Source of the DNA: Novosphingobium sp. B 225
GTDB taxonomy: Bacteria > Pseudomonadota > Alphaproteobacteria > Sphingomonadales > Sphingomonadaceae
Assembly: GCF_002198665.1 (NCBI RefSeq)
Contig: NZ_MWLM01000072.1
Coordinates: forward strand, 119,748-183,747
Reading direction: 5' to 3'
DNA length: 64,000 bases
The notes beneath the pieces were generated by a model. The model made no database searches, had not been told where the DNA came from, and saw nothing but the letters and a program-made list of their open reading frames with translations. Each line of letters starts with the position of its first letter. Position 1 is the stretch's first letter. Below, one piece after another: positions 32,945 to 52,241 of this stretch. The position numbers and the translations under genes were made by a program.

Positions 32945-35900
32945 ATGGCGACGTTACGTGAGTTCGACATAACCGCTTTCTCCATTCCCGTCGTCTATAC
33001 GCCCGAGGGCGATTACGATCCGAATGGCATGGTTTTCATTCCCTCCGCCATGCGAAACCTGCTCGATTGGTGCAGGAAACTTTGGTTCGATCAGAATGAA
33101 CGCCTGCCGCGATTGCATCATCGCGCGCAGCGGGCTCGCCTGGTCATTGACGGACTGGAACGGCTGGAGGCGATGATCGCCCGACTGCGCGATGGCGGCT
33201 CGCATGACCAGGCGCTTCTGGCGCGCTGGATCGCGCGGGAGATGGGCGAATCGTGGGATGATTGCGATCACTACGAAAGCGATCCCCATCACGAACGCGA
33301 CGATCATCGCCGCTATCATGAATCAGACAGAAATCGCGCCGTCCGGATGAATTTTGAACGGGCGATCACGGATTTGCGGATTGCCCTGATCGACCTCAAC
33401 CGCACGCAGGGACTGGTGCAATGGGCGGCGACTGACGCGAACCTTGATTCTCGGGATGCGCGCGGCCTGCAAAGCGCATTGGCCGATGCTCCCGATCCGC
33501 TGGCAGAGCCGATCATCCGGCTCGTCAGCCTGACGCCGCGCCAGCGCGAGCAATTGCGCCAACACTGGATCGTGCAGGAAAGCATGATCACGGAAGCCAT
33601 TGCCCAGTGGTTTCGCGATCATGATACCACAGCGACGAATGCGGAATTGCAGGAAGCCGCACCACGCCTTCCTGGCAGCGGAAATTGGCTCGCCAGGCTA
33701 GTGTTCAACGATCACAGCGGCGCTGCGCGCGGACAATGCGACCGTTTCAACCCGTTGAAGCCCATTCCTTTTCTGCGGCCATTGGTGCTGCGCGCCTGTG
33801 TTGGCGAACGCGTGAAGATCAGGCTGGAAAATGAACTTTCAGCCCGGTCGGTCGAACTGTTCGTGCAAGGCCATGTCTATGACAATAGCCCGCGCTACGC
33901 CAACGGCAGGGTGATCACGGAAGCAAGCAAATTTCCTTGCCCGCCCAATGATTACCGCACGATCGAGTTCACAGTGGATACCGAAGGCGTCTGGCCCATC
34001 AACGATATCGCTGACGTGCGCGGCAATGAAAACGGCACCAATGTCCATGGCCTGTTCGGCGCGCTTACCGTGGAGCCTGCGGGAACCCGCTGGCTGGATC
34101 AGGAAACCGGGCTGGATCTGACCGACAGGAAATGGGCCAGCATGCTGGACGTTATCCTCAAACCGGCAAACCCCACACCAGAACCGCCAGCCTATGTCGA
34201 TCACCAGACCGACGTGCAGCAAGGCGTGCAGCGTTATTTCCGCGAATTCACGGTTTTCATCCATGATGAGCCAGAAATCCATTCGGGGTTGCATACGGTA
34301 GGTGACCATTCGCTGATGCCGCTGTCCTATCGCGCGGCGCCAATGCACAACCGCCTGCCGCACCGGATGCGCGAACTTGTTCGTGAAACGGAACGCCATC
34401 CGCTGCCACCGCCGGGAACAGTTGACCTGAAGGCCTTCGGCTGGGAACTTTCCGACGAACTGGACGAATGCTTCCTCACCGCCCGCGATTCCCACGGCAA
34501 CTGGCTGGAATATGTCGCCGGGGAAGAACAGCATCACAGCAGCTGGCTGTTCGGCGATCCACTGACACACATCCAGCGGGCCTATGCCGGCGATCCATGC
34601 CGGGTTCGGCTGGTCCATGCCGGGGTCAAGGAAACGCATGTCTATCACTTGCATGTCCACGAATGGCATGCCGTGCGCACGCACAACGCAGAGCCTTCGT
34701 CCTGGGGCGACAAGACATACGACCAGGGGAATGGCACCCCCAAGGTGGGAAAGGGTTCCCATCTGCTCGATTCCATCACGATCAGCCCGCAAACCGGGAT
34801 GACGATAGATCCGCTGTTCGGTTCCGGCAGCCGCCAGCACGCCATCGGCGACATCATCTGGCATTGCCATCTTTATCCCCATTTCCACCACGGGATGTGG
34901 GGCCTGTGGCGCAGCCATGATCGCCTGGTTGATGGCACGCGCCTTTATCCTGATGGATCCTACTGCCCGCCGCTGAAGGCGCTGCCGGATCACAGGCCGA
35001 AGCGGGCGACGCTGAAGCAGCCCGGCTTCCCTTGGTTCATTGACGGGGTCTGTTCCGCCAAATCGCCACCACCACCGGCGGCAAGACCCGATCAGCGCAA
35101 TGGCAGGCGGATCATTCTGGAGATGCCGGATGCATCGCCCCTGGAAATTGCCGCCATGGCACCGGGCTGCCGCACCGGAAAATCGCCGGGTGCCCTTTTC
35201 GTCGATCTTGATGGGCTGGCGGCAAAGTGGAACGCCGAAGCCGGGCTGCCTGCTCCGCGCAAGATCAGCTATGATATCGAAGTCCGCAGTGACCGGATCG
35301 ATTACAACGTCGATGGCTGGTTCGATCCGAACGGCCACCATTACCGCCTGATGGGCGTCAAGATTTCCGAGCAGGACAAGGCGGGCCGATACCAGGTCGT
35401 GGAGGAGAAAACATTTCCGCATGATCTGGCGGCAAACCCTGAGCCGTGCTTTCCGCGCGCCAATCACGGCGATATCGTCGAATGGCGCCAGCACAATGTG
35501 CTGCCCAGCTTCGTCGCGGATCAATATGATTTTGGCCAGTTGCCGGTTGAATGCGGCCTTCATGTCCATTTGGTGAAGTTCGATGTTCTGGCAGCGGACG
35601 GATCGGCTACCGGCTGGAACTATCTCTCTGGCGCCAGTGCCCCCGAAGCGGTCGGTGCGAACGGACCGGGCGAAATGCGCAATGTCAGCCTGCATCGCTG
35701 GGTGGTAGACGAGGAGTTTGGCCCCTGCTTCTTCCACGATCATCTGCTGGCCAATTTCCGCCAGAAGCGCGGCCTGTTTTCCGCCCTTATGGTGCAACCC
35801 CACGGTTCCGCTTGGCAAAGGCACGACGATCAAAGCGTTGCGGCCTGGGGGGAGCAGCAGGCGGTGATCGTCCCGCCCGAAGACAGCAACCTGCCACCTT

Positions 35901-37882
35901 ATCGCGAAGCATGCCTTGCCGTTGCCGATTACGTGCCGATGTTGAATCGCCAGCACAGGGCGCTGAACCCGCCTTCAGTTCTATCGGGCATGAGCGACCC
36001 CGGCGTCATGGGGGTAAACTATCGATGTGCCCCGATGCGCTTCCGCGGGCAGGATCCATCCGCGTGGTTCAGTTCGGCAGTGCGCACGGACAAGAACTTC
36101 GCGGGTGACAAGGGCGATCCCGATACACCGATCATCAGGACCTACCCGGGTGAGCGGCTGCGTATCCGCCTGATCCAGGGTTCCCACGAAGAACAGCACA
36201 GCTTTACCGCCCACGGATTGCGCTGGCGGCGCGACTGGGGACATCCGCAGGCAACCCTTGTCAACCAGCAGACACTTGGCATTTCAGAGGCCTTCACGCT
36301 GGACATAAACCCGCTTGATGCCTCGGCCTACGGCGTGGGAGATCATCTGTGGCATTTCGGCAACCTTGACGATATTTGGCTTGGCAACTGGGGGCTGGTG
36401 CGGGTCTTGCCGCCAACCAGGCAATCGCGCGATGTCCTTGCCCCGCTGCCGTCGCGAACAAATTCAGGCACAGACGCGATCAAAGCGATGCAAGATGACG
36501 CTGGGGCCCTGTCGCCCGCCAATCGCACTGCCGATCGGACATATGTAGTGGTCGCCCAGCGCCACGAACACCAGTATGTCGGCAACATCCTGACCGACCC
36601 TTGGGGGCTGACCTATCGCGCGGTGCCTTTCGCCGAAGGTGAGTTGGAAAAGGCCATCGAAGAAGAACGGGAAATCGAAGCGTCCGGTTTGCGTTCCGCG
36701 AAGCGGGGACCGAGGGAAGGCCTCGACAAGCTCTTGCGCTCTCAAAAGCTGCCCAAAACGAACCAACCGCTGGTCTTGCGTGCCAAGGCCGGAGAATGGG
36801 TGCGTGTCATCCTTATCAACGATCTGCTGGAAGCGGACGAGGATGTGCGCAATCGCCGCAGGGATGGCCGCCAACGCTTTGGCCCGGAACCAGCACCGGC
36901 GCGATTACCGGTCGAACATCGTGATTGGCAAGGCAATCCGGATCGCCGCACGGTCAGCACGCGCGTTTCGCTGCATCCTTCACTGCTGAGATACAATGTT
37001 TCCAGCAACGATGGTAGTTTTGTCGGTCTGAACCCCGATACAACCGTCGACGCCCGCCGACAGTTCGGGGATGGACACGGGATGCACAGCGCCAACGCCG
37101 ATGGAGGCTTGGGCAGCGATGTCGTTTCGCGGGCTGATCACTCGGGCAAGCGCAACTGGCGTGAATATTGGTGGTGGGCCGACCCGCAGTTGGCTCCGAA
37201 GTCTGCCGCAGACGGCGGCATGGGGCAAGTGTGCTATCTGCATGACTTGGGCGACATCCGCAATCACCGCCACCATGGGCTGATCGGCGCGCTGGTCGTC
37301 TTGCCGGAAGACGTCGAACCTTACGCACCAGGTTCAGAGGCTTCAGACAAGCCGGATGGCTGGACCAGCTTTGCCGCCGATATTCGCAGCTCGAACGACA
37401 AGAGCCTGGTGGCGCGCGAAACCTTCTGGTTCATGCAGGATGGCTTGCGGTTCTTTGTCAATGGCAGCGAGCATGCCCCGATGCACGATGCCGATCCTGA
37501 GCTGGATCCGGTCGATTGCGGCCAGAAAGCCGTCAATTATCGCAGCCACCCTGTGCATGAAGGTCGCGTCGCGCAGAACGGAGAGCCGCTGGTGCCAGAC
37601 CCGATTTTGGAGACAAAGAAGGGCCATACGGTGTGGCTGCGCGTTATTGGCGCGAACGACAAACCGCGCCAGCAGGGAATCGTCGTGCATGGCGCCAAGC
37701 TGCAGCAAGCGCTCTGGATGGGGGATAACAGCCCGATGATCGGAGCGATGGCGGGCATATCGCCCTGCCGAGTCGAGAATTTCAGCTTTTCGATCAATGG
37801 AAAAGGGGATTTCGCCGTGCGGTCTGGCAGTTTCCTCTGGTCAACACAGCAGGGCATGTGGGCACGGATCCGGACCAAGTGA
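32945..37882 (+). CDS. Giant multicopper-oxidase-like protein (1645 aa)
   Basis: A very large cupredoxin-type protein, two to three times the usual multicopper oxidase length. Residues 565-575 (HVYHLHVHEWH) and 640-651 (HCHLYPHFHHGM) give the HxH and the full HCH-x3-H-x4-M type-1/type-3 copper signature. The second half holds further His-rich repeats: LHVHLVKF, FFHDHLLANF, GDHLWHFGN and YLHDLGDIRNHRHHG. These lack the cysteine, so only one complete copper centre is visible. The first 200 residues are helical, and no signal peptide is present, which is odd for this class. It is last in the DUF1326/DUF2182 operon. Confidence 0.82.
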   Translation: MATLREFDITAFSIPVVYTPEGDYDPNGMVFIPSAMRNLLDWCRKLWFDQNERLPRLHHRAQRARLVIDGLERLEAMIARLRDGGSHDQALLARWIAREMGESWDDCDHYESDPHHERDDHRRYHESDRNRAVRMNFERAITDLRIALIDLNRTQGLVQWAATDANLDSRDARGLQSALADAPDPLAEPIIRLVSLTPRQREQLRQHWIVQESMITEAIAQWFRDHDTTATNAELQEAAPRLPGSGNWLARLVFNDHSGAARGQCDRFNPLKPIPFLRPLVLRACVGERVKIRLENELSARSVELFVQGHVYDNSPRYANGRVITEASKFPCPPNDYRTIEFTVDTEGVWPINDIADVRGNENGTNVHGLFGALTVEPAGTRWLDQETGLDLTDRKWASMLDVILKPANPTPEPPAYVDHQTDVQQGVQRYFREFTVFIHDEPEIHSGLHTVGDHSLMPLSYRAAPMHNRLPHRMRELVRETERHPLPPPGTVDLKAFGWELSDELDECFLTARDSHGNWLEYVAGEEQHHSSWLFGDPLTHIQRAYAGDPCRVRLVHAGVKETHVYHLHVHEWHAVRTHNAEPSSWGDKTYDQGNGTPKVGKGSHLLDSITISPQTGMTIDPLFGSGSRQHAIGDIIWHCHLYPHFHHGMWGLWRSHDRLVDGTRLYPDGSYCPPLKALPDHRPKRATLKQPGFPWFIDGVCSAKSPPPPAARPDQRNGRRIILEMPDASPLEIAAMAPGCRTGKSPGALFVDLDGLAAKWNAEAGLPAPRKISYDIEVRSDRIDYNVDGWFDPNGHHYRLMGVKISEQDKAGRYQVVEEKTFPHDLAANPEPCFPRANHGDIVEWRQHNVLPSFVADQYDFGQLPVECGLHVHLVKFDVLAADGSATGWNYLSGASAPEAVGANGPGEMRNVSLHRWVVDEEFGPCFFHDHLLANFRQKRGLFSALMVQPHGSAWQRHDDQSVAAWGEQQAVIVPPEDSNLPPYREACLAVADYVPMLNRQHRALNPPSVLSGMSDPGVMGVNYRCAPMRFRGQDPSAWFSSAVRTDKNFAGDKGDPDTPIIRTYPGERLRIRLIQGSHEEQHSFTAHGLRWRRDWGHPQATLVNQQTLGISEAFTLDINPLDASAYGVGDHLWHFGNLDDIWLGNWGLVRVLPPTRQSRDVLAPLPSRTNSGTDAIKAMQDDAGALSPANRTADRTYVVVAQRHEHQYVGNILTDPWGLTYRAVPFAEGELEKAIEEEREIEASGLRSAKRGPREGLDKLLRSQKLPKTNQPLVLRAKAGEWVRVILINDLLEADEDVRNRRRDGRQRFGPEPAPARLPVEHRDWQGNPDRRTVSTRVSLHPSLLRYNVSSNDGSFVGLNPDTTVDARRQFGDGHGMHSANADGGLGSDVVSRADHSGKRNWREYWWWADPQLAPKSAADGGMGQVCYLHDLGDIRNHRHHGLIGALVVLPEDVEPYAPGSEASDKPDGWTSFAADIRSSNDKSLVARETFWFMQDGLRFFVNGSEHAPMHDADPELDPVDCGQKAVNYRSHPVHEGRVAQNGEPLVPDPILETKKGHTVWLRVIGANDKPRQQGIVVHGAKLQQALWMGDNSPMIGAMAGISPCRVENFSFSINGKGDFAVRSGSFLWSTQQGMWARIRTK

Positions 37883-38794: not shown

Positions 38795-40519
38795 ATGATC
38801 GGTCGTAATAGAATCTTCAAACCTAATTTTTGGGCCCGCCTCTTCCGTCTGCAAAACTGGAAGCTGGTAATGAACAGCTCTGTGCGCGATCGCATTTCGT
38901 GTTTTTCCGATGGCGCCTTCGATTTGCCGTGCATTGAGATTAGCGCAGTTTCGACTACCAAAGGGCTACTCTGGCATACCGTCGAAATCCGGACGAATGA
39001 ACAGACCCATCGCTTCTCAGGTCTCGGAGCAACCGTAGCTTCGGAAATCGCCCAAGAAGCACTGGCGTTTATCAATCGCCATCTCTCGATCCTCATCGAG
39101 CAGAACAAAGGCCAGCTATTCTCGGTCGATGAGCGAATTCGCGCAATCACGGAAGACAGCAGGCAATACTTGGCGCATGCTGACATTGCGAAGGCGATAT
39201 CGCAGGTTCCAGGCGACGCCTCGAAGGCCCTTTCGCACCCGCTATTCAATCCTGCCCTCATGCCAGGATCTCTGCAGAAGGATCTCCCGAAATCGTTTGA
39301 AATCCTGACCGATCCGCGCGTCAGGCACCGGTACAACGAGATCTTCGTCGTGACTGAGTTGGAGAGATTCAGCTCGTTCTTTGACGATCTGGGAGGCTTC
39401 TGCCTGTCCAAGGAGCAACGCGAAGCCTGCATACGCCTTGAAGACAATAATCTTCTGGTGGCTTCTGCAGGATCAGGAAAATCGGCGACGATGGTCGGCA
39501 AGGTCTCCTACGCCCTGGAGAAAAACCTTTACGAACCGAACCAAATTCTGGTGCTGGCATTCAACCGCAGCGCCGCTGATGAACTTAAGGAACGTATTTC
39601 TCGGCAGCTACAGGTCGAAGAGGAGGATCTGCAATGTCGAGTGACCACCTTTCACGCACTTGGCCGGGGCATCATTGAGGAGACGGAAGGGAGACCTCCC
39701 CAGCTGGCAAATTGGGTCGAGCACCCCGCCGGCGAAGCTCGTGTCATCGATCAACTGATCAAAGACCTGATGGTGAACGATGCGGATTATCGTTTCGCAG
39801 GCTCAGACATCACCATTTTCACGCAATTTGAATCAAATTTCGGAGCTTGCTGGCAAGGCCGGCTCGAACAAACCTATCGCTGCAATCAGCTAATCGCCGA
39901 GACCGCAGCGAAATTCGTTCAGCGAAACCCGGAGCAGATCAAGAAGACTGTTCGTTCGACACGTCCTGCAATCGCTCGCTCGATCCGGATCGTTCCCGTC
40001 AGTGTCGAGTGGAAGAAGCCCAGTTTTGATGAAGCCTGCCACATCCTGCTGTCGCGTCTCGACGCGTTCTTGGAGGGTGTCTGCGAGCAATGGCGGACTG
40101 ATCCAGGGCAAAAGCTCAAAGTCCTGGTGCTCTGGCGATATAACCACCTTGACCCCTTCAAGGCCCACAAGCCCGACTATGCAAATATCGAGGTCAGCGG
40201 ACTGTCCTTCCATCGCGCCAAGGGCTTGGAAGCGGATTACACGATCCTCCTTGATGTGAGTGAAGGGGATTATGGTGTCCCAAGCCGCATCGAAGACGAC
40301 GAACTTCTGAATCTGGTGATCCCGCGACCGGAGACTTATTCGTATGCTGAGGAGCGACGACTGTTCTACGTCGCGCTGACGCGCGCGAGCCGCGGGACAT
40401 TCCTCTTGGCGAATGATCGCAAGCCCTCCCGCTACATTCGCGAGCTTTGCGAAATCGCAGGCGAGAACGTCCGGTTCGAAACGGTTGAGGGAGGCCCGCA
40501 AGCACCCTGTTTGCACTGA
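38795..40519 (+). pseudogene. UvrD/HelD-like helicase with internal deletion
   Basis: Reads as one 574-codon frame, but key parts are missing. Present are the HelD-like N-terminal region, motif I ASAGSGKSA (223-231), Ia (QILVLAFNRSAADEL), TFHALG, motif IV (TYRCNQL), V (GLEADYTILLD, 477-487) and VI (EERRLFYVALTRAS, 519-532). Between residues 328 and 331 the sequence jumps from MVNDA to DYRFAGSDI. The Walker B DExQ motif and surrounding subdomain are lost in frame, and relatives are much longer. The C-terminal end runs into a UDG-like remnant on the other strand. ATPase activity is unlikely. It could be a pseudogene or a dominant-negative relic. Confidence 0.8.
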
Positions 40520-40772
40520 TCGAACCGTTCGCTGCTAAATGCGCCATCGCCGCTGAGACCTTTGGACCGAGGGGAACAATCAGAGCCTTGTCCAGCTGGG
40601 CCAACTCCTTGCCAGTGTAATCCTCCAAGGTCGTTCGCAACACAGGCGTCCGAATTATATCGGGCGTCCCGGACCAATTTTTGCCGTCTACGAATACCGG
40701 ATAGCGAAGCGCAGATGTGAAGTGCACGAGATGGGCCTTGTCACTCCAAAGACTTGCCGTTGATACCTTCAT
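40488..40772 (-). pseudogene. UDG-like protein fragment
   Basis: An open frame of about 95 codons (SDKAHLVHFTSALRYPVFVD, LDKALIVPLGPKVSAAMAHL, ending RVLAGLP) that looks like part of a uracil-DNA-glycosylase-superfamily-like protein. The expected continuation after the GLP motif is replaced by the antisense of the helicase 3' end. Its ATG overlaps the stop of the VWA fragment by ATGA, so the two were neighbours in an operon before truncation. Family naming is tentative. Confidence 0.5.
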
Positions 40773-41119
40773 GCAGCACGTATCAGGTTGATCCCTTGTC
40801 CTGCCGCCCAGGCCACTGTGTCTTGTTTGGCCAAGGCAGTTGCCATTAGATCAGGGAATTGGTCCGGCGTGCTGGCGAAGACAGGACACCCCATAGAAGC
40901 AAGGGCCTGTGCGTGGGCTTGTTCGTAAGCCGGACGACCATCATCCGAAAAAGCCAGCAGGACGATGAGATTGACGCCGCACGACACGAGTTCAGCCGCG
41001 CGTGCAAGCATCTCCTTAGCATTGCCTCCTTCATAGAGGTCGCTGATCAGAATCAGGTTGGTCTTGGCCGGATGACTGACCAGGCCTTGGCAATAGGTGA
41101 GTGCTGCGTTGATGTCTGA
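40769..41119 (-). pseudogene. VWA-domain protein, C-terminal fragment
   Basis: In-frame codons read INAALTYCQGLVSHPAKTNL, ILISDLYEGGNAKEML, VNLIVLLAFSDDGRPAYEQA and MGCPVFASTPDQFPDLM. This is the C-terminal part of the MoxR-associated type of von Willebrand A protein. The frame closes upstream at a TGA at 41120-41122 and the N-terminal bulk is missing. It is a remnant of a larger operon with the UDG-like fragment. Confidence 0.7.
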
Positions 41120-41156: not shown

Positions 41157-42944
41157 TCAAGCACCGCTCGATCGGAAATCGGACGAAGGGGCCAGTATCA
41201 AACCTTCATCGCCAACAAGATGGAATACATCCTCTAGACCAGAAAGCGAGACATTGTCTCGACCGTCTCGGAATGCCTCGCCAATGGAACGACCATCGCC
41301 AATCGCGAGATAGAACCCCGCCGTGAATTTTAGAGCTGCTTCATCATCCAATTCATTAGTCGTTCCCACCACCGTAGACACAGATCTTAGTAAATGCAGG
41401 GCTTGATCACCCGTGAAGCAAGCATTTAGGACTACAAGTTTAACCCCGCGACCAGCTAAGAACGCAGCCAATGCATCAGACTCAACCAATTTTGTCCCCC
41501 CGGCTCCATCGCGTAGAGCAATTCCGGATGGATCCGCATGTCCGGAAAAGTGAATCACGTTTGGAGCTTCTCGACGCACCAGACGCACCAAATCATCTGG
41601 CTGCACTGCGTGCCCGGCAACAACTTCTATCGAGTCGCGATTCAAGCTTGATTGAAGTTGGATAAGCAGCGTCCGGAACTCATCTTCCAGATCGAGTGGG
41701 GCAGTGTCTCGCGGATTTGCAGCAAGAAAAAGGATCTTTGTCGATCGTTTCGGCCGATCTAGGCCCTGCGAGTAAGGGCCCGAATCTCCGTTACGCATCA
41801 ATGCAAATTCATTAGAATATTTAAGTATAAATTCACGCAAATCGCCATTCTTGACGGCATTTGCGTATGGTTGTTGCAGATTCTTTGCAAGCACATTTAA
41901 ATGATCATCTTCAAGCGCGCTGATCGGCTCAATCAGAGACATACTTGAAAGTTGTGATATCACAGCCGCCCAGCCTGAGGCGGTGTTCCGAGAAAGGGTC
42001 TCGGGGTCCAGGAGCATTGATTTATAGCCACTAAATTCGGCACTTGCAATACTCGGGCATTTTTCCAAATGCTCTGAAAGATACATCCAGTTTGCGGTTG
42101 TAGAAACGCTTGGCTCTCTATAAAACTCTGATATTGGCAAAAATCCATTGTATGACTTGAAAACAGAATGCATCATGCTTTGTAATCTCTCAAGGTGAGA
42201 AACTCCATTCTGCAATCTAATGCAGGCAGGCACAATAGATGAAGCAATTCCCATTGTGTATCTGTATGCATTCTTTTTATTTCTATCTAATTCATCTTTA
42301 TTTCTAAATCGATATACCCACATTCCCTCATCTGTAATATATGATTCGTTGAATATATAGCCCAAGCCCCTCAGGACAGCTGCCTCCGCATTCTGAATGA
42401 GATCGCAGTTGGATGGCCCTGATGCAGCGCGTGACGCGTATGAGTTGCAACACTCCACTATGGCCGCGATCGTCACTGGGTCGACGCGTTCATCCAATCG
42501 TTCACCGAAATCGACCCATAGGCCTTTCTCGGTTTGATTTTCCTCGTTTAGGAGGAAGCCAAGCGCTTCGGTCACAAACGGATGGCCGTGCCCGTCAAAG
42601 TGAGAAAAGAAGTTTATTGCGCCGGCGGTGTGTCTCGAATGTGCGAGAATTTCAGCTTCCGGGTAATCGGCTGACCCGAGCGATCTCATCATACCAAAGG
42701 CGCCATTCGCTCTCCTGCGTGTCGCCAAGTAATCCCTAAAACGCCCAACTGAAAATGGATTCGATCTTCCAACGTAAGCTGATATTGCCAATGCACAATT
42801 CACACTAACCGATATACTTCCTAGGTCATGCTTCAGACCATACAATAAATCGGAATTATCGATCGACCTTCCCCAAACACCATTTTCGTGCTGGTCCAGC
42901 AATAGCAGCCAATAAGCAAACGCGGCATAAGTTTGAGAATCCAT
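41157..42944 (-). CDS. Alpha-toroid repeat protein with C-terminal CHAT protease
   Basis: A 595-residue protein. Residues 1-390 contain helical repeats with QW-like turns (HENGVWG, RRANGAFG, TEKGLWVDF, TDEGMWVYRF), as in squalene-cyclase/prenyltransferase toroids. Residues 402-590 are a CHAT caspase-like domain opening with KILFLAANPRDTAPLDLEDE. The catalytic dyad is H469 in VIHFSGHA and C509 in VLNACFTG. Base composition is clearly more AT-rich than the flanks. It is third in an operon after the kinase-fold and ferritin-like genes, 33 bases behind the latter. A protease triggered through the toroid is a reasonable guess, with an abortive-infection role possible. Confidence 0.85.
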   Translation of the reverse strand: MDSQTYAAFAYWLLLLDQHENGVWGRSIDNSDLLYGLKHDLGSISVSVNCALAISAYVGRSNPFSVGRFRDYLATRRRANGAFGMMRSLGSADYPEAEILAHSRHTAGAINFFSHFDGHGHPFVTEALGFLLNEENQTEKGLWVDFGERLDERVDPVTIAAIVECCNSYASRAASGPSNCDLIQNAEAAVLRGLGYIFNESYITDEGMWVYRFRNKDELDRNKKNAYRYTMGIASSIVPACIRLQNGVSHLERLQSMMHSVFKSYNGFLPISEFYREPSVSTTANWMYLSEHLEKCPSIASAEFSGYKSMLLDPETLSRNTASGWAAVISQLSSMSLIEPISALEDDHLNVLAKNLQQPYANAVKNGDLREFILKYSNEFALMRNGDSGPYSQGLDRPKRSTKILFLAANPRDTAPLDLEDEFRTLLIQLQSSLNRDSIEVVAGHAVQPDDLVRLVRREAPNVIHFSGHADPSGIALRDGAGGTKLVESDALAAFLAGRGVKLVVLNACFTGDQALHLLRSVSTVVGTTNELDDEAALKFTAGFYLAIGDGRSIGEAFRDGRDNVSLSGLEDVFHLVGDEGLILAPSSDFRSSGA

Positions 42945-42977
42945 ATCTATTTCATGACCCTCAATAGCTCAATGGGT

Positions 42978-44108
42978 TTATAATGAGAGCGACTGACTAA
43001 ACAATTTCTGTTGCCTTATCTCGCTCTCAGTGAAGCCAACAGATCGCCGTAAGTCTGCACCGAACCAAGGTTCCGGTGGTGGAGGGACCGCCACTTGTTG
43101 TTCAAGCCGAGCGATCAGGTACTGCGCATCCTCTCCTGCCAATCTCCTGAACCAATCAAGTCCGTTCTTCACATGCAAAATTTCATCGGCCTGCAGCGAT
43201 AGGAAAATCGCCTCGAGATCGTATCGCCCGAGTCCATGTTGCTGATCGGCCATCATGTAGTCGCCTCCGAGTGCGTATCCTTCCCCCAAAAAATGTTCGA
43301 TGCATAGGGTCTCTGCGAGGGATTTGCCGATCAGAAAATTATCCCAGATATCAAAGCAAGGATCGAAATCTTCAATGGAGCCGCCAAGCCGTTCGAACGC
43401 GCCTTTGACAAGCATCGCATGCCGCCCCTCCTCATATGTCTGCTGGCCGAGCAACAGATCCAATTCGATTGGCAGTTCCTCCTGAAATTTCAAACACATC
43501 GCCGCACACACTTCGCTTGCGGGAAATTCGATAGTGAACATTTGAGAGAAGAGTTGGGAGAGAAGGTCCCCCTCTTGGCAATTCAGTTTAGCAACTGGCT
43601 TGGAAGCATGGCGACCAGGTCGTATTGGGACTGGAGGGAGTTGAACAAGCGTGAATTGAGGCTCACTTCCGCTGCCTACCTGAACGATGTCCATATTCGG
43701 AGCTGGGTAAGCTAAGCCCAAGAGTTGTGCACAAGCTTCGATTGCCCGACGCGCCAGCGTTGTCGCACGCGCGTCATGTGTTTGGAGCGCGGTGGTCACT
43801 CCATCAATGAGTGCGATCAGATTCGCGAACGAGATGGTGTCACTTCCGTTCTGCCCAACAGCGATCTTCCTAAGACGTTGCACGTCATCGGACGGGCAAT
43901 AGGCGAACATTCTCGGATCTGGCCCACAAAGGCCTTCTACAAGCGCTTCGAGAGCAGTCACGCATGCTCCTATTACCCCGCAAATATCGATCTTGCGTTC
44001 CGGCTGCTTGGCATGCAGAAGCTCAGTTCGAAGGGCATTGAGCAAGGAAAACAGCAAAAAAGACGTATTGTGTCTCAAGATATGCGGATCATAATTAGAA
44101 CTATGCAT
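42978..44108 (-). CDS. Ferritin-like di-metal protein
   Basis: A 376-residue protein with a helical N-terminal third. A ferritin-like four-helix region follows from about residue 200 to 350. The metal-binding pattern is visible: Glu in FQEELPIELD, EExRH in TYEEGRHAMLV, Glu in IEHFLGEGYALGG, and DEILH in LQADEILHVKNG. It resembles DUF455-like ferritin-fold proteins but no exact family is named. Its ATG at 44108 overlaps the stop of the PfkB-like gene by eight bases, so the two are translationally coupled. Confidence 0.78.
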   Translation of the reverse strand: MHSSNYDPHILRHNTSFLLFSLLNALRTELLHAKQPERKIDICGVIGACVTALEALVEGLCGPDPRMFAYCPSDDVQRLRKIAVGQNGSDTISFANLIALIDGVTTALQTHDARATTLARRAIEACAQLLGLAYPAPNMDIVQVGSGSEPQFTLVQLPPVPIRPGRHASKPVAKLNCQEGDLLSQLFSQMFTIEFPASEVCAAMCLKFQEELPIELDLLLGQQTYEEGRHAMLVKGAFERLGGSIEDFDPCFDIWDNFLIGKSLAETLCIEHFLGEGYALGGDYMMADQQHGLGRYDLEAIFLSLQADEILHVKNGLDWFRRLAGEDAQYLIARLEQQVAVPPPPEPWFGADLRRSVGFTESEIRQQKLFSQSLSL

Positions 44109-45060
44109 TGGGCAAATTCCTGTCCAATTCCGTGACCCATTCAATATATTCTGAGGCTGGCAGAGCTCCGGTGACGCGGCATTGAGCTGTACCATGTTCG
44201 GTTAGTTTGGCCGCCAAAGCGCCACGCTCTAGACGCTCACCTCTCAGGATGTGATCTAAATACTTTGCACTCACCGCCGCCCCGGCACCGGCTGAATCCA
44301 CAAAATGCTCGTTGGATATGCTTGAGCTTTGCGAAAAAGACACGTCCCCCGCCTCCGCAATCGCAAGCCCTTTCTCGCTGGATGTTATAACAAAAATTCC
44401 AGGCCGTTCCCGCGAAATAGATCTTGAAAATTCAACAATTTCCTGCACGGAGTAGTTCAACATTCCAATAGATATTTGATATACGCGTTCTCCATCACAC
44501 AGTGCCGCCCAATAATCTATGGTATCTTTCGCCATATTTGGATGAACGGTCCCCAAATTCATGAAAGATCCTTCGATTACCTGGGGAGCATGATTCTTTT
44601 GAAAACATCCTTTCATCCATGGAAAACAGTCAATATACAGCCACCTGCAGCTGTTTGCTGCGAGATCGATCATTTCGATTGAGGCTAGACCAACTCGAGG
44701 GTCCGAAAACCAGCGAAGCTCTCGAGATCGAGTCGAGATTTGCACTTCAAACGGTACGCCATTGTCAGGCCCAAGCACCAATTTGAGCAACCTTCGATTG
44801 AACAAATTCAAGAGGGCTGGAGTATGCACTGACGTGCCCGGGTGATTAAAAGCTCCACAAACGCGAAAACCCCTTCTGGCTAAAGATAGAGCCACAATTG
44901 GTGCGTCGCATTTGATTGTAGGACGTTGCCGTTCTCCGGACGCCCCTTCCATTGGTGGGATTGGGAGGCGCTCCACAGTAAGCCGAGTTACCTCGGCGAG
45001 GTAACCCCACGCGATTACGTCTATAGTTTGAGGACTCACTGCTGCGTGTCGTGCTTGCAT
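44101..45060 (-). CDS. PfkB-fold carbohydrate kinase-like protein, catalytic Asp replaced
   Basis: A 319-residue ribokinase-like protein. It has the N-terminal strand DVIAWGYLAEVT and FVITSSEKGLAIAEAG before the signature. The signature-2 region reads HFVDSAGAGAAVSA. In active members this is DTxGAGD with the last Asp as catalytic base; here that position is Ala261. It may bind a nucleotide-like ligand without phosphorylating it. It is first in the operon with the ferritin-like and CHAT genes. The most upstream ATG is used. Confidence 0.75.
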   Translation of the reverse strand: MQARHAAVSPQTIDVIAWGYLAEVTRLTVERLPIPPMEGASGERQRPTIKCDAPIVALSLARRGFRVCGAFNHPGTSVHTPALLNLFNRRLLKLVLGPDNGVPFEVQISTRSRELRWFSDPRVGLASIEMIDLAANSCRWLYIDCFPWMKGCFQKNHAPQVIEGSFMNLGTVHPNMAKDTIDYWAALCDGERVYQISIGMLNYSVQEIVEFSRSISRERPGIFVITSSEKGLAIAEAGDVSFSQSSSISNEHFVDSAGAGAAVSAKYLDHILRGERLERGALAAKLTEHGTAQCRVTGALPASEYIEWVTELDRNLPNA

Positions 45061-45190
45061 TTCGCTGAGTTAAAGAACTTTTTCGCGTTGGGGAAGGTTT
45101 GATCTGCCACGGAACGCAGCTGAAGAAACCCAAGTGACGGCTATGATGCCAGGAGGACAATTCGCGTATCGCCTGATTGCCCTGATCCAT

Positions 45191-45409
45191 TTATGTATCA
45201 AGGTGAGCTGCGATCCAGCTCACAATTTCATTCTCTGACCAAGCAACCGCATACCCGCCCAACTGCACCGGCTTCGGAAACTTGCCCTCCGCCATCCAGC
45301 GGTAGATCGTAGAGCGGCCGAGCCCAACGCGGTGCTGGACTTCCTTGAGGCGAATGAGCCGGGTCACGCGCTTCGGCTCGGGTGCGACGTCCAGGTCGGC
45401 ATCAGCCAT
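45191..45409 (-). CDS. AlpA family excisionase/regulator
   Basis: A 72-residue MerR-like winged helix protein: LIRLKEVQHRVGLGRSTIYR, WMAEGKFPKPVQLGGYAVAW, then SENEIVSWI. AlpA proteins regulate int or act as directionality factors for P4-type integrases. Its ATG lies inside the end of the integrase-derived frame, so it is read from the same transcript. It is the expected excision factor of island 2. Confidence 0.88.
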   Translation of the reverse strand: MADADLDVAPEPKRVTRLIRLKEVQHRVGLGRSTIYRWMAEGKFPKPVQLGGYAVAWSENEIVSWIAAHLDT

Positions 45410-46394
45410 GACGCCCTCCCACTCCGATGCCATGGCTATCACCAAGCTGCGCATCCTTGCGCTCCAACTCGTCGATATGATCGGCGAGCAGCCGCGCCAC
45501 GCGGTGCGCAGTGCCTTTAGCCCAGCGGGGTTTGACGTCGTGGACCTGGTTGCCGAGTAGCGGTACCGCATGCGCCCTGCGCGCTTTCATCTTGCCTGCC
45601 GGGATTTTCCAAATTCCCTCTACAAGATCGATCTCGCGCCATTCGGCATGACGCAGTTCGCCAGGCCGGACGAAAACATGCGGCGCGATTTGCAGAGCGA
45701 ACCTCGTGACAGGGTAGCCAGTGTAGTCGTCGATTGCTCGCAGCAGACCGCCCAGTTCCTTGGGTTCAAGGATCGCTGCATAGTGCTTGGCACGGGGAGT
45801 GACGAGAGCGCCCTTGAGCATACTGGTCGGATCGGCCGTGCAGCGGGTTGTGGCGACGGCGTAACGAAAAACCCTTCCAGCGAACGAACGACACTTCTTG
45901 GCCGTTTCGTGCTTGCCGGTCGCTTCGAGCCGTTTGAGCGGCGCCAGGACTTCGAACGGCTCGATATCCTGGATGGGCCGGTCGCCAATCGCGGGAACCA
46001 GTTGATCGAGGAAGTAATTGGCCTTGATGAGGGTAGCATCGGCCCGGCCGTTCTGGACCATCATCTGCTCGATGTATTCGCGCGCGACGGCCTCGAAGGT
46101 CTGGGCTGAGAGGAACTCCTCTCGAATCTTCTGCTTACGCTTCTCGAACGCAGGGTCACCGCCCGAAGCCACCGAATGGCGTGCCTCGTATGTCGCTTCT
46201 CGCGCCTGTTTCAGACTGATGTCGGGATAGCTTCCGATCGCCAGCTTCTTTTCAACCTTGCCGATCCGATACCGAAATCGCCAGAGTTTGCCGCCCGATG
46301 GAGTGACCTCGATATAGAGGCCGCGTTGGTCGGCAACCTTGTATGGTTTGTCCTTCACCTTGAGTGCGCGGAGCCGAGTCTCGGTCAAAGCCAT
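45402..46394 (-). pseudogene. Tyrosine integrase (DUF4102) lacking catalytic C-terminus
   Basis: 330 codons. The DUF4102 arm-binding domain (MALTETRLRALKVKDKPYKV), the core-binding domain and the start of the catalytic domain are intact up to HVFVRPGELRHAEW and MKARRAHAVPL. After that the sequence changes to unrelated VHDVKPRWAKGTAHRVARLL. The HxxR, H/W and Tyr motifs are absent. The foreign tail itself looks frameshifted against the start of the AlpA reading. The island 1 integrase shows what is missing, about 100 residues. Recombination activity should be lost. Confidence 0.85.
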
Positions 46395-46395
46395 G

Positions 46396-46449
46396 TGCGG
46401 GCCTTTTCTTAGCCGTTTTTGCAAAAGGCCCGCAAAAGGCCCGCAAAAA
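46396..46449. repeat. Putative integrase arm sites, island 2 right
   Basis: AAAAGGCCCGC occurs twice in tandem from 46423 (11-base period), and an inverted copy GCGGGCCTTTT lies at 46397-46407 just upstream of the integrase start. The set ends 116 bases from the attachment core, matching 114 bases in island 1. Confidence 0.6.
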
Positions 46450-47308: not shown

Positions 47309-48493
47309 TCAGGCTGGCTCTGCAAATTCTATTTGCAACGGTTCACTCGCTGGTTCGCTAAGCGTCTTATCTAGCGCCATAGAAGCTGATCTGGCGGCTG
47401 GGCCATCTTTCGTTTGCTCGACAAAATCGAATTGCGCTCGCAGATGCTCGAGAAGCATTCGTCCCAATACAATTGGCACGGCATTACCGATCTGGCTTCC
47501 CGCAGCCATCAGCCCGCCTTCAAAGCGGAAGCTATCGGGAAAGGTCTGAATTCGAGCGGCTTGTCGCAAGGTTATTCCGTGGTTGAGTACGGGGTGGACG
47601 AAACGCCCTTTCGAAGGGTTGATGCAGGCGGTCGTCATTGTCGGTGCAGGCTTGCCGGGATCTATGCGCCCATAGACGTCGTTATGTCCGTCGTGCTCCT
47701 CGTGGCATGCGAGCGTTCGACCGGAGTCTCGTCTACTGCCTCCGTTTGCAGGCGTGCGGGCGAAGGCGGCGACCAGCTCGTCGCTGTGATTCATATGAAC
47801 GTCGTTAGGATCGCCGCGCTGAGCTGGCAGAAATGCCGGACTACAGTTCAACCACGGAAGAAGTCCGCCGCTTCCATCGGCATTGTAGGCAGGCGTCGGC
47901 GGCCAGGCAAAATCGTCCCGCATTGTGCCCGGCTGGACACCTAGAATGAACACTCGTCGCCGGCGCTGCGGAACGCCATAGTTGCGGGAGTCAAGTACGA
48001 CCGGCCTGAACAGCCTGTAGCCTGCGGACCGCCCCTCATCATAAAACCGCGCTAGTGCCGCGCTATGCCGAGGCCAGAGCATCCCGGGAACGTTCTCCAT
48101 CAGGAAAGCGTGCGGCTTGAAGGCCCGGACGAAATCGAAGTAGACGTGGATGAGGTCGTTGCGACGATCGCTGACCCCGGTGTCGTTGAGCCGATGGGTC
48201 GAAAAACCCTGGCAGGGCGGTCCACCCAACATGAGGTGGATTTGGCCCCGCCTGCGCAAGGTCTCGTCAGCCAGCCTGACGGGATCAAGTTGCCGGATAT
48301 CTGCCTCGAGCAGCCGCGTCGGCCGCCTGCCGCGGACGAGGTTCTGCCGATAAGTCGCAGCAGCGTGGCAGTCCTGCTCGACCGCGAGCGACACCTCGAA
48401 ACCCGCTTGCCGGGCCGCAAGGGATAACCCGCCGGCACCGGCAAACAGGTCCACGCACCTCAGTGCTGGAAGGTCTCGCTTGCCGATGGCCAT
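47309..48493 (-). CDS. C5-cytosine DNA methyltransferase
   Basis: A 394-residue Dcm-type enzyme with all core motifs. Motif I is DLFAGAGGLSLAA, IV is GGPPCQGFSTH with the catalytic Cys, VI is MENVPG, VIII is NYGVPQRRRRVF, and IX-X is RQAARIQTFPDSF and GSQIGNAVP. The target-recognition region lies at about residues 200-300, and the recognition site cannot be read from sequence. It is last in a minus-strand run after the dioxygenase, Nudix and kinase genes, 76 bases behind the kinase gene. No restriction enzyme is adjacent, so it may be an orphan or part of the module. Confidence 0.93.
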   Translation of the reverse strand: MAIGKRDLPALRCVDLFAGAGGLSLAARQAGFEVSLAVEQDCHAAATYRQNLVRGRRPTRLLEADIRQLDPVRLADETLRRRGQIHLMLGGPPCQGFSTHRLNDTGVSDRRNDLIHVYFDFVRAFKPHAFLMENVPGMLWPRHSAALARFYDEGRSAGYRLFRPVVLDSRNYGVPQRRRRVFILGVQPGTMRDDFAWPPTPAYNADGSGGLLPWLNCSPAFLPAQRGDPNDVHMNHSDELVAAFARTPANGGSRRDSGRTLACHEEHDGHNDVYGRIDPGKPAPTMTTACINPSKGRFVHPVLNHGITLRQAARIQTFPDSFRFEGGLMAAGSQIGNAVPIVLGRMLLEHLRAQFDFVEQTKDGPAARSASMALDKTLSEPASEPLQIEFAEPA

Positions 48494-48569: not shown

Positions 48570-51500
48570 CTATTGGTTGCGATGGTCGGCCCGGCCGCAT
48601 GCGACGCTGAAATAGCGCGATCGGGTGACGCCGCGGGTGAACCTCGGCTGGTCGAAGGTCTCTGGCTTGACATACCAAACTTGGCTGACCGGCAGTGCCG
48701 CAGCGACGATCGCAGCCGCGGCCGCTTGCATCTTGTTGCCCGTGAGACCGATCTCGAAGTCGAGGCCGCTGCGGATGAACCAGCGCTCGTGCTGCCGGGC
48801 GAGGCTGTTGACGAGCTCGCCGAGATTTCCGGCGTCTGCGGATGCAATGACGCCGCCCGGCGTATCCTCAAGCGCGACCCGGGCTGCGATCCCGCCGACC
48901 CGTGCCCTCGAGGTTTCGGCAATGTCGGTAATAATCTGGACAGCGTCATATTCGCGCGCTGCCGCCAAGTGCAACAATCGTTCATGGCGCGGCGAGGCGA
49001 AGGCAGAAAGCGCGCGCAGCCTGGTCCCATCAGTCTCGGCGGCGAGAAGGGGAAGCAATTGATAGGGGCCTCTCTCGCCCGTCAGCACGCCTCGCAGCGC
49101 GGTCAGCAGCTGATGGGGATCCGAAGCGCCGTAGGCTTCGAGAACCTTGCGAAGGTCCTCTTCGAGCGGATAGTATTCGTCCGCGCCGGTGTAGGCGATG
49201 ACGAGATCCCTTTCCGCGCGAAGGCCCGCGCGAACCGCAGTAAACAGGGCGGGCTTTGCCAAGCCGGTGATGTCGACCATCGTGCGACCCTCGAGCGCCG
49301 GGCCGGAACTGTCGGAAAAGTCCGAATAGGCAACCTCCTCCAGAGAAATGCCCCGGTCAGTGATAGCCTTGCGCATGTCGTCACCGTGCCCTGGATTGTC
49401 GTACCGGATGGCAATCACCCGTCGAGGTCTCAACCTAGTCAATGTCCTCATCAAGGATTCCGGAGTTCTGTCCTCGAATCCTAACCCGATGATGAGGTCG
49501 TCTACGGCTGTTTTTGCCAGGTCCTCAGAAGCCACTTCATGCACGGTCGGCGCCGACGGAAAGACCATCTGCAGGCTATCCTGGTCAGAAGGTCCGGAGG
49601 AACTGTCGAGCTGGGCCAGCAGGTCCATCTGCGTCGCCTGGCTCTCCGGCGTCGCCCTTAGGGCATGTTCGATTGGCCGTTCCGCTATGTCATCTGAGGA
49701 AGGTTCGTCCTCACTCTCGGGCGCAGCAGTGGAAAGGTTGCGCAGGAGAATTTCCCGTCCCGCCGTCGGCTCCTTGAGCCATCGCTGCAAATCTTCGCCC
49801 GACAGCTCGAACCGGTCACGATCGGACAGTCCGATGAAGTTTGCCAGGCCGTAGATTTTTCGAAACGTCAGCTTGAACTGCTGGACCGGATCGGAATCGT
49901 GCGTCTTAGTCCGGGCGGTGCCTCCTGTGAACACGAACACGCCAGCATCGACCAGCTCGCGTAGCCTCGTCATCTGTTCCTGCAATTCGCCTGCGGTCAC
50001 TCGCACATAGAGTGAGGTGTACTGCCTGATCCTGCCCGTCGGCTTCTCCCGCCCGGACTCGATCAGCAGCTGATGCGAAGCCTCCGCGAACTGAAGCGCT
50101 ACCAGCTTGAGATCGCTGCCTCTGCGGTCGAGGCTGTAAAGGTGGCGCGCGCAGAAATCCTGAAACACCTCATGCTGTCGTTCCGGCTGCACCGGCAGCG
50201 TGATTCCGCTACCGGTGAGGATTTCCTGATATATTTGGATCACCGCGCCGATGTCTCCGACGCAGACGCCCGCCAGCGCCCGAAGTCCATGGTAAAGCCG
50301 TTTGCGCTCTCGCGAGCGTGTACGCGTCTCGGCTATAGCGCGGGCTATGGACTCGAGATCCTTATCTCCGAGCACGTTTGCGGAGCTTTGCCCGGGATGC
50401 CCAGGAAACAGCCGGGCGCGTGCATCGAGAATCTCGGTGACGAAGGTCTTGCCGCTTCGATCTTTCAGCCGGGTCTGCACTTCGGCGCCCAGATCGAACG
50501 TCGTGAAATCGCGGCCGGCAGCAGCCGGGTGAACCTGCCCAGGAGACTTGAGGCTGAGGAAGATCGTCTGCGCTTCCGAGGTTAGCTTGAATGCGCAATG
50601 AGAGTGCTGAAACAGCAGCGCCGAGAGCAGTTCCTCGATGCGATCGGCATCGAGGTAGCGTGTCGAGACGTCATCGAGGAGGAAGAGGATCTGCGCATCG
50701 TGCCAGATCGGGGCCGCTTTGCGGATCGCGTCTGCGAGCAGAGGAAACGCGGTGTTAGGATTGGTTGCCAACCGCAAACCAGAATCGCTGCGGCTGACCC
50801 TGATCAGCAGGTCGCTTAGACATCGCTCGAGATGCTCGATCGTGGATGGCTGTTCGAGTTCAGGTCGCGGTGCGAGTGATTCGCAGACTGCATGGAGAAG
50901 TCCGGCGCCCGCGTCGAACGCCATGGCATCCTTGGCAAGATCCTCGAGATGAGCCATCGCTCTCGCCGCCTGGGCCGCGTAGGCGACCAGCAGGCGAGCG
51001 AAAAGTTCCTCGGTCGAAGGCCGGTCGGCTCGAGGATCGACAGGGATCAGCCGTTGGGCTGAGACAAAGAGGCCGACGTACCCGTCCTCTTTCACCCGCT
51101 TCAGGGCGGCCGCATCTTCCTCCTTCGGAAGGACAGCGGCGCGGGCATGAAACTGCAACGAATGGAGCAGCATGGTCTTTCCGCAACCACGCATTCCCGT
51201 CATAACGAGAGGGCCTGGCGAACTGACTTTCCTCAACCAAGCTCCGTCGGGATCGACGATCAGCTGCGGCACATACCAAGCATCGAGCGTCTGTGCGTTG
51301 TAGGATTGGTCGAAAGTGCGCAGGACGGTTTGATTTCGCCACGGACGCCATGCTTCCGCGGTACGATGGTATTGCTCGCGGATGCCGGTAATCATGTCGG
51401 AGGCCACAGGTGTCCGCTGGTTCTCGGTCGCGGTAGCCAGGCCTTGAGCGATCCCGTGCAGCTTCAGCCCGATGCGCTTGTCCAGATCAGGTGCGGTATC

Positions 51501-52241
51501 GCCGCCGGACAGGAGCCGGTCGGCCATCGCGAGAATATGATGTCCGATCCAGTGCAGGTCACCCGTGTAGCCGCCCCCGGACCGCCGATCGCCGGCGACC
51601 GAACCTAGGTCTATCGCTACGGCCCGGATAGCGGGCTCGATTGCATCGGCACGTCTTCGCCCGGGTGGAAGCTCCTCGACGATGATATTGCCCGCGTGCA
51701 GGTCGTTGTGGTTGACCAGAAGGCGCTCAAACTCCTCCTTCATCCGGAACAGGTCGCAGGCGATCTGCGCGGCCTCCGGCGCCGTTAGCGGTCGCGCGCC
51801 CGACAGATATTTTGCAAGGGTGTCGCCATCAACGAACTGAAGCACCGCGACATGGCAGCGCAGGACGAGGCCCGCAAAGTCGATGTCCGCGTCGAAGATG
51901 TCGTCAACGGCCACGACATGATCCGCGCCATCGGCAACCTCCGAGTGGCGCGCGGACTCAGCTGCAAAGTCCTTGTCGAACTTTTCGTACATGGCGACCG
52001 GCGCGACCTTGAGGACCCGCAAGGCGCGGTTGAGGCCGGTCCTCGGCCGGGCGACGAAGGTCGCGGCGTAGAAACCGCGCCCGAGCGGCCGTTCGACGTC
52101 GAAATCGCCGATCGATGTCGGCGTCGAGGTCAGCGGAAAGTCGTATTCGCGGCCGCAGTCAGGACACCGGTCGCTCAGCCGCTTCAATTCCTGACCGTTG
52201 TCAGGACAGTTGAAACAGCAGAACTTGCCAGTTTCGGACAT
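48570..52241 (-). CDS. Zinc ribbon-protein kinase-P-loop ATPase-CARF-like multidomain protein
   Basis: A 1223-residue protein. A Cys4 ribbon (C9, C12, C26, C29) comes first. A Ser/Thr kinase domain (45-300) has the glycine loop PLGRGFYAATF, catalytic NHNDLHAGN (177-185) and DLG (211-213). An ORC/Cdc6-like P-loop ATPase has Walker A GMRGCGKT (349-356) and Walker B ILFLLDDVS (518-525), with a winged-helix-like region near 740-825. After an acidic linker, residues 915-1215 form a Rossmann-like region with two TG-x-K motifs, VDITGLAK (989-996) and GLTGNK (1165-1170), as in CARF/SAVED-type sensors. It reads as a sensor-switch protein. The CARF link is inference. Confidence 0.8.
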   Translation of the reverse strand: MSETGKFCCFNCPDNGQELKRLSDRCPDCGREYDFPLTSTPTSIGDFDVERPLGRGFYAATFVARPRTGLNRALRVLKVAPVAMYEKFDKDFAAESARHSEVADGADHVVAVDDIFDADIDFAGLVLRCHVAVLQFVDGDTLAKYLSGARPLTAPEAAQIACDLFRMKEEFERLLVNHNDLHAGNIIVEELPPGRRRADAIEPAIRAVAIDLGSVAGDRRSGGGYTGDLHWIGHHILAMADRLLSGGDTAPDLDKRIGLKLHGIAQGLATATENQRTPVASDMITGIREQYHRTAEAWRPWRNQTVLRTFDQSYNAQTLDAWYVPQLIVDPDGAWLRKVSSPGPLVMTGMRGCGKTMLLHSLQFHARAAVLPKEEDAAALKRVKEDGYVGLFVSAQRLIPVDPRADRPSTEELFARLLVAYAAQAARAMAHLEDLAKDAMAFDAGAGLLHAVCESLAPRPELEQPSTIEHLERCLSDLLIRVSRSDSGLRLATNPNTAFPLLADAIRKAAPIWHDAQILFLLDDVSTRYLDADRIEELLSALLFQHSHCAFKLTSEAQTIFLSLKSPGQVHPAAAGRDFTTFDLGAEVQTRLKDRSGKTFVTEILDARARLFPGHPGQSSANVLGDKDLESIARAIAETRTRSRERKRLYHGLRALAGVCVGDIGAVIQIYQEILTGSGITLPVQPERQHEVFQDFCARHLYSLDRRGSDLKLVALQFAEASHQLLIESGREKPTGRIRQYTSLYVRVTAGELQEQMTRLRELVDAGVFVFTGGTARTKTHDSDPVQQFKLTFRKIYGLANFIGLSDRDRFELSGEDLQRWLKEPTAGREILLRNLSTAAPESEDEPSSDDIAERPIEHALRATPESQATQMDLLAQLDSSSGPSDQDSLQMVFPSAPTVHEVASEDLAKTAVDDLIIGLGFEDRTPESLMRTLTRLRPRRVIAIRYDNPGHGDDMRKAITDRGISLEEVAYSDFSDSSGPALEGRTMVDITGLAKPALFTAVRAGLRAERDLVIAYTGADEYYPLEEDLRKVLEAYGASDPHQLLTALRGVLTGERGPYQLLPLLAAETDGTRLRALSAFASPRHERLLHLAAAREYDAVQIITDIAETSRARVGGIAARVALEDTPGGVIASADAGNLGELVNSLARQHERWFIRSGLDFEIGLTGNKMQAAAAAIVAAALPVSQVWYVKPETFDQPRFTRGVTRSRYFSVACGRADHRNQ

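What the first reader, a model, noticed from the sequence alone, without database searches (positions are those of the whole stretch)
41157..45060. Kinase-fold, ferritin-like and CHAT protease operon
Three coupled genes pair a CHAT caspase-like protease carrying an alpha-toroid repeat region with a ferritin-like di-metal protein and a PfkB-fold protein. CHAT proteases are established effectors in several bacterial immune systems. This partner set is not one I can match to a described system. The operon is AT-rich and sits in an integrated island.
Basis: partly seen in the sequence, partly recalled or inferred. Interest (0 to 1): 0.75.

Follow-up and report, generated by a model that had tools for sequence, protein, structure and literature searches.

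The report
Orphan three-gene CHAT protease operon
A bacterium carries a foreign, mobile-looking set of three coupled genes, a caspase-like protease with a ring-shaped sensor region, a probable two-iron protein and a kinase-like protein that has lost its catalytic residue, which looks like an undescribed kind of bacterial immune or stress switch, although no second copy was found and nothing has been tested.

Summary
Window 41157-45060 (- strand) carries three intact, tightly packed genes: a PfkB-like protein, a DUF455 ferritin-like protein whose start codon overlaps the stop of the first gene, and a CHAT protease with dyad H469/C509. The N-terminal half of the CHAT protein has about five 60-residue GxW repeats and aligns weakly but in register with squalene-hopene cyclase repeats, so the alpha-toroid reading is supported, not proven. 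Two refinements: the PfkB-like protein has GAGA where active kinases have GAGD, so it is probably a pseudokinase, and the ferritin-like protein keeps six residues that I take as di-iron ligands. Composition is foreign. The operon follows an AlpA gene; in congeners the same block is followed by other genes, including an oligonucleotide cyclase plus HNH-SAVED effector (CBASS-like) in one of 11. PADLOC and the held papers gave no matching system. No orthologue was found in six overlapping same-phylum genome searches, plasmids, viral contigs or one insensitive GTDB scan, so co-conservation is not shown. Best reading: a rare mobile conflict module with the CHAT protease as executioner. Function is inferred.

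The parts
44101..45060 (-). PfkB/ribokinase-fold protein, 319 aa; the GAG(D) motif reads GAGA (residues 258-261, 44278-44289), so probably a pseudokinase
42978..44108 (-). DUF455 ferritin-like protein, 376 aa from the ATG that overlaps the previous stop; E194, E227, H230, E276, E309, H312 kept; residues 1-179 modelled only below pLDDT 50
41157..42944 (-). CHAT protease with an N-terminal alpha-toroid-like region, 595 aa
42045..42944 (-). about five 60-residue repeats with GxW/F motifs (residues 1-300); four motifs found by pattern, the fifth (YNGF, residue 265) placed by eye
41214..41738 (-). CHAT domain (residues about 403-577); H469 at 41538-41540, C509 at 41418-41420
45191..45415 (-). AlpA-type regulator immediately upstream; lies in the recurring AlpA block (45210-45557)
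45402..46424 (-). tyrosine integrase that lacks most of its C-terminal catalytic part (Pfam matches positions 3-80 of 172)
40769..41101 (-). remnant of a CoxE-type VWA gene just downstream, which probably marks the other edge of the insert

Best explanation
A horizontally acquired three-gene conflict (probably anti-phage or anti-plasmid) module. SHOWN by sequence: three tightly packed genes, the first two overlapping; intact CHAT dyad; GxW repeats fused to the protease; ferritin-like protein with six candidate di-iron ligands; PfkB-like protein without the catalytic aspartate; foreign composition; position as cargo behind an AlpA block. INFERRED: the PfkB-like protein no longer phosphorylates but binds a nucleoside, sugar or nucleotide and reports on it; the DUF455 protein oxidises a small molecule or a partner, or senses oxygen or iron; the toroid holds the CHAT protease inactive and reads that signal, or a partner protein, directly; once released, the protease cleaves one or a few host or partner proteins and stops growth.
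For: Packed, intact genes and dyad. The only convincing solved relative of the CHAT protein is 8tl0, E 6e-13 over the CHAT part, which PMC11417357 names as the SAVED-CHAT protein of type III CRISPR immunity (passages). CHAT lies behind an N-terminal repeat region, as in TPR-CHAT and SAVED-CHAT. Foreign codon composition. AlpA slot: of 11 congener loci fetched, one has an oligonucleotide cyclase (E 5e-174) plus an HNH-SAVED effector (E 3e-142) within 5 kb, on the opposite strand, and one a HipA-family protein. Nearby CARF_STK_AAA-type protein and DNA methyltransferase.
Against: No second copy of the trio and no orthologue of any of its genes was found, so there is no co-conservation. PADLOC has no match for any of the three. 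CHAT domains also occur in non-immune settings (general knowledge). Most of the other genes behind the AlpA block in congeners were read only by eye, and several look like metal-resistance or unassigned genes. The toroid call rests on weak scores. No functional data.
Confidence: 0.45

Rival explanations
1. A redox or metabolic stress switch rather than an immune module: the di-iron protein senses oxygen or iron, the pseudokinase senses a nucleoside or sugar, and the CHAT protease adjusts a regulator by limited cleavage.
For: Candidate di-iron ligands kept; PfkB relatives act on carbohydrates (Pfam description) and nucleosides (general knowledge); no PADLOC defence model matches any of the three proteins.
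Against: Foreign composition, mobile slot and absence from the other same-genus genomes searched are unusual for a housekeeping regulator.
Confidence: 0.22
2. A small biosynthetic or protein-modification cluster: a toroid related to cyclases and prenyltransferases, a kinase-like protein and a di-iron oxygenase modify a substrate that the CHAT protease trims.
For: Toroid aligns weakly with squalene-hopene cyclases; a generic DUF455 pair in L015 lies near genes that read by eye as a kinase, a signal peptidase-like protein and an asparagine synthase.
Against: The toroid is fused to the protease and has no DxDD or DDxxD motif; the kinase-like protein has lost its catalytic residue; no precursor peptide or transporter was noticed by eye among ORFs of 60 aa or more around the genes (shorter ORFs not examined).
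Confidence: 0.13
3. A one-off assemblage: three unrelated foreign genes brought together by recombination in a decaying region, with little joint function.
For: Not found together elsewhere in the searches made, nor singly; flanked by remnants and a truncated integrase.
Against: Overlapping start and stop, a short second gap and similar composition across all three intact genes point to one transferred operon.
Confidence: 0.15

Closest known systems
SAVED-CHAT (type III CRISPR-associated protein; PDB 8tl0)
   Same: CHAT domain at the C-terminus behind an N-terminal region; closest solved relative of the CHAT domain (E 6e-13)
   Different: N-terminus here is GxW repeats, not SAVED (recalled architecture); no CRISPR genes noticed next to the operon (not searched for); partners are a PfkB-like and a DUF455 protein
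Craspase / TPR-CHAT (type III-E CRISPR)
   Same: CHAT protease joined to a repeat region
   Different: Toroid-type GxW repeats instead of TPR; no gRAMP noticed (start of the abstract of PMC9729208 seen)
Caspase-superfamily ternary conflict systems (VMAP/iSTAND, Kaur et al. 2020, PMC7159879)
   Same: Caspase-like peptidase in a multigene foreign module; a CoxE-type VWA remnant lies next door
   Different: No MoxR, VMAP or iSTAND component in the trio; the held text has no occurrence of ferritin, PfkB, prenyltransferase or terpene (passages only); the VWA is a fragment of a neighbouring gene
DUF455 ferritin-like proteins
   Same: Pfam DUF455 domain and six candidate ligand residues
   Different: Long N-terminal region (about 160 residues before the Pfam match), which the Geobacillus protein also has, and coupling to CHAT; best plasmid hit is that lone Geobacillus gene, 31% over 154 residues
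PfkB / adenosine-kinase-like family
   Same: C-terminal ATP-site region aligns, residues 206-278
   Different: GAGA instead of GAGD; the N-terminal glycine pair is not apparent

Membership tests
CHAT proteases (PF12770) | CHAT domain above the curated cut-off | tested here: met
   37.1 bits, cut-off 24
CHAT proteases (PF12770) | His-Cys dyad | tested here: met
   H469 in HFSGH, C509 in LNAC; aligned with HFIGH and LNAC of 8tl0
CHAT proteases (PF12770) | proteolytic activity | not testable with these tools
   needs an assay
Alpha-toroid (squalene-hopene cyclase / prenyltransferase type) | repeats of about 60 residues with GxW motifs | tested here: met
   repeat limits and pattern chosen after inspection
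Alpha-toroid (squalene-hopene cyclase / prenyltransferase type) | profile match to a toroid family | tested here: inconclusive
   no Pfam match at E 10; hhalign 28.4 against a shuffle maximum of 25.5, probability 4.5%
Class II terpenoid cyclases | DxDD catalytic motif | tested here: not met
   no DxDD in residues 1-395
DUF455 | domain above the curated cut-off | tested here: met
   40.8 bits, cut-off 34.3
DUF455 | six carboxylate/histidine ligand candidates | tested here: met
   invariant in 5 aligned proteins; that they bind iron is inferred
PfkB kinases | family profile above the cut-off | tested here: not met
   13.8 bits, cut-off 25.8; kinship supported by other means
PfkB kinases | catalytic Asp of GAGD | tested here: not met
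   GAGA
Known anti-phage system | PADLOC models for the components | tested here: not met
   0 families for each of the three at E up to 1 (library of 2023)
VMAP / MoxR-VWA ternary system | MoxR, VWA and VMAP genes in the operon | tested here: not met
   only a VWA_CoxE fragment outside the trio

The most novel reading that the evidence does not exclude
A new type of immune switch in which a pseudokinase of the PfkB fold senses a nucleoside, sugar or nucleotide disturbed by infection, a di-iron oxidase converts or licenses the signal, and a toroid receptor unleashes the caspase-like protease fused to it: to my knowledge the first CHAT system gated through metabolic pseudo-enzymes instead of an RNA guide or a dedicated cyclic-oligonucleotide messenger.
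Probability: 0.15. Interest if true: 0.85.

Novelty: new variant of a known kind. Interest (0 to 1): 0.5.

Why it matters
In the examples that I saw, CHAT immune proteases are switched on by an RNA-guided complex (TPR-CHAT, start of abstract) or belong to cyclic-oligoadenylate-linked proteins (SAVED-CHAT, passages). A CHAT protease fused to a cyclase-like toroid and coupled to a pseudokinase and a di-iron protein would add a metabolic or redox input, with three simple gene removals to test it. The AlpA-linked cargo slot, which carries a CBASS-like pair in one congener, is also worth mining for unknown defence genes.

Tried and rejected
Relatives of the trio: plasmids (P0002 one hit; P0003 none at 1e-3 and three chance-level hits at E 10; P0001 72 records, of which I saw 40 rows, all matching from residue 308 onward, nearly all only from about 359; its N-terminal 395 residues none at E 10), phages (P0002 only, none), viral contigs (three scans, none), one GTDB genome scan with a two-sequence DUF455 alignment (75 stretches, 2 generic DUF455 loci). 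That scan used only two peptide patterns and was not sensitive; other phyla are largely untested because the whole-genome searches stay within the window's phylum.

Rejected: the VWA gene as a fourth member (a fragment with stops upstream, whose relative in congener G056 lies in another gene setting). Rejected: the 114-aa ORF at 44846-45190 as a gene (overlaps the PfkB-like gene in another frame; inference). Promoter-like sites: 1 found, 4.4 expected, so nothing to report. AlphaFold of the CHAT protein alone gave pLDDT 35 and was not used. The DUF455 model (5 sequences) reached mean pLDDT 51, mostly 60-81 over residues 181-340 with dips to 41, and its best 50 fold matches are ferritin-like and di-iron proteins, none with E below 0.04. 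Two of its four helper sequences were translated from codons that I chose and that are not proven starts (L014:7917, L015:7806). An alignment of the five repeats by MAFFT was out of register and not used.

A mistake and its repair: 20 PfkB loci and 12 cyclase loci were selected, 9 and 4 were dropped because the framed stretch was 200 residues or shorter. Of the 11 and 8 rows left, 4 PfkB rows and 3 cyclase rows were in a wrong frame. With those sets the kinase did not beat its shuffles (9 of 100 reached it) and the toroid did so barely (24.2 against 23.5). I dropped the wrong-frame rows by requiring GAGD for PfkB and at least two QxxxGxW motifs for cyclases (7 and 5 kept) and repeated the test; that is the result used.
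Full report
What is there. Three ORFs lie head to tail on the - strand: 45060-44101, 44108-42978 and 42944-41157. The second starts inside the stop of the first (ATGCATAG), and 33 bases separate the second and third. Their third-position GC is 0.456, 0.525 and 0.440, against 0.65-0.77 for four other genes of the window. Per-kilobase GC is 0.45-0.53 over 41-45 kb against about 0.60-0.68 in much of the window; 38-41 kb and 46-47 kb (0.52-0.57) are also low.

CHAT protein. Pfam CHAT over residues 406-561 at 3.2e-9. The N-terminal 300 residues hold four GxW/F motifs at 18, 77, 137 and 203, spaced 59-66 residues, and by eye a fifth at 265. A chain of four such motifs appeared in 1 of 20,000 shuffles; the best self-alignment scored 55 against a maximum of 48 in 200 shuffles; five repeats aligned better than in any of 300 shuffles (pattern and repeat limits were set after looking). 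hhalign against five squalene-hopene cyclases scored 28.4 against a maximum of 25.5 in 150 shuffles, with two repeats in register (score; alignment shown with the uncleaned set). Against this: hhalign's own probability is 4.5%, Pfam gives no family at E 10, and no structure model is usable. There is no DxDD or DDxxD motif, so a cyclase activity is unlikely. The N-terminal half is found nowhere on plasmids even at E 10.

Ferritin-like protein. DUF455 at 2.5e-10. Aligned with four DUF455 proteins from two other genomes, the candidate ligands E194, E227, H230, E276, E309 and H312 are invariant; that these bind metal is inferred from the ferritin pattern (two ExxH plus two Glu). A low-to-moderate model shows a four-helix part whose best 50 fold matches are ferritin-like and di-iron proteins, none with E below 0.04. 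The first 179 residues are modelled only below pLDDT 50. The one plasmid relative is a lone gene on Geobacillus plasmid pGS18 flanked by transposases.

PfkB-like protein. Pfam reaches only 0.036, but in co-linear position. Two genome searches hit PfkB proteins at the same C-terminal part (G365, 3.1e-4; G482, 3.6e-4). Pairwise scores with these two, which were picked because they were hits, are 102 and 99; the best of 11 other rows is 83, against a maximum of 54 for 100 shuffles compared with the same 11 (4 of the 11 were wrong-frame rows). hhalign with the cleaned set of 7: 34.2 against a maximum of 24.9 in 150 shuffles, probability 32.5%. In the alignments DSAGAGAA faces DxTGAGDx: the aspartate is alanine. 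That this Asp is the catalytic base is recalled knowledge of the family. The protein is therefore more likely a ligand-binding pseudokinase than a kinase.

Surroundings. Upstream lie an AlpA regulator (7e-21) and a tyrosine integrase whose catalytic domain matches only profile positions 3-80 of 172. Downstream lie a VWA_CoxE fragment, whose relative in congener G056 sits in another gene setting, and a remnant related to a 351-aa gene of congener G046. In G046 that gene follows the AlpA block directly; in the window the operon and the VWA fragment stand between the two. A query of AlpA plus the integrase end matched 104 of 195 same-genus genomes, own included; most of the listed matches cover only the integrase part, and the list was cut. 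The 11 congener loci with about 300-350 bases of the AlpA block at 71-81% were fetched; shorter and weaker AlpA-block matches were not. Behind the block the genes differ: one locus (G011) has an oligonucleotide cyclase and an HNH-SAVED effector, together CBASS-like, within 5 kb on the opposite strand; one (G985) has a HipA-family protein about 2 kb on; one (G975) ends at its contig edge after about 330 bases; the others carry genes that I read only by eye (nuclease-like, metal-resistance-like, unassigned). In the window itself a CARF_STK_AAA-type protein (1661.6 bits) and a cytosine methyltransferase lie 2-7 kb away.

How rare. Searches in the window's phylum, which overlap one another and include the own genome: CHAT protein in 98 relatives (one further hit, CHAT part only); PfkB-like protein in 299 (one ordinary PfkB) and in 195 same-genus genomes (none); DUF455 protein in 289 (nine weak hits in the DUF455 region); all three joined in 346 (four weak DUF455-region hits) and 398 (eleven weak DUF455-region hits and one PfkB). 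Not every protein was run in every set. No orthologue of any of the three, and no trio, appeared outside the own genome. The own genome has one other CHAT protein on another contig.

Literature. Nine searches of the held open-access library gave no title or abstract opening that describes this set: 20 of 176 papers listed; 0; 15 of 903; 15 of 19; 15 of 15; 10 of 16; 2 of 2; 15 of 26; 10 of 28. Most subscription papers are not held. I saw passages of PMC8195603, PMC7159879 and PMC11417357, and otherwise listings and abstract openings only.

Interpretation. Intact dyad, fused sensor-like region, foreign composition and a slot that in one congener carries a CBASS-like pair make a conflict module with the CHAT protease as executioner the best single reading (0.45). 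How the partners act is inference: a pseudokinase that binds a ligand, a di-iron protein that oxidises or senses, a toroid that restrains the protease. The absence of any second copy keeps a stress switch, a modification cluster and a chance assemblage open. Novelty lies in the partner set and the toroid-CHAT fusion, not in the parts.

Noticed in passing
window 48570-52241 (-): 1223-aa protein that matches PADLOC CARF6--CARF_STK_AAA over nearly its full length (1661.6 bits); neighbouring genes read as a NUDIX protein (by eye), a 2OG-Fe(II) oxygenase and an AAA_28 protein and a phosphoribosyltransferase-like protein (weak). CRISPR genes were not looked for.
   Followed up: partly
window 47309-48493 (-) and 63232-63993 (-): C-5 cytosine methyltransferase, and some 15 kb away an MvaI/BcnI-family restriction enzyme; whether they form one system was not tested.
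   Followed up: no
L111 (G011:C27:1-7000): Oligonucleotide cyclase and HNH-SAVED effector (CBASS-like) near the same AlpA block in a same-genus genome; next to them a DUF2235-like protein (named by eye).
   Followed up: partly
window 58521-63211 (+): TraD-like and MobF-like conjugation genes (by eye) with about 72% DNA identity over 450-600 bases to Blastomonas and Novosphingobium plasmids, so the region may be an integrated conjugative element or a plasmid.
   Followed up: no
window 38795-40519 (+): UvrD-type helicase ORF that keeps N- and C-terminal parts but seems to lack the middle.
   Followed up: no
L014 and L015: Tandem DUF455 genes in a betaproteobacterium and an acidobacterium, in L015 near genes that read by eye as a kinase, a signal peptidase-like protein and an asparagine synthase.
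   Followed up: no
window 32945-37882 (+): 1645-aa ORF with repeated His-rich motifs of multicopper-oxidase appearance (by eye).
   Followed up: no
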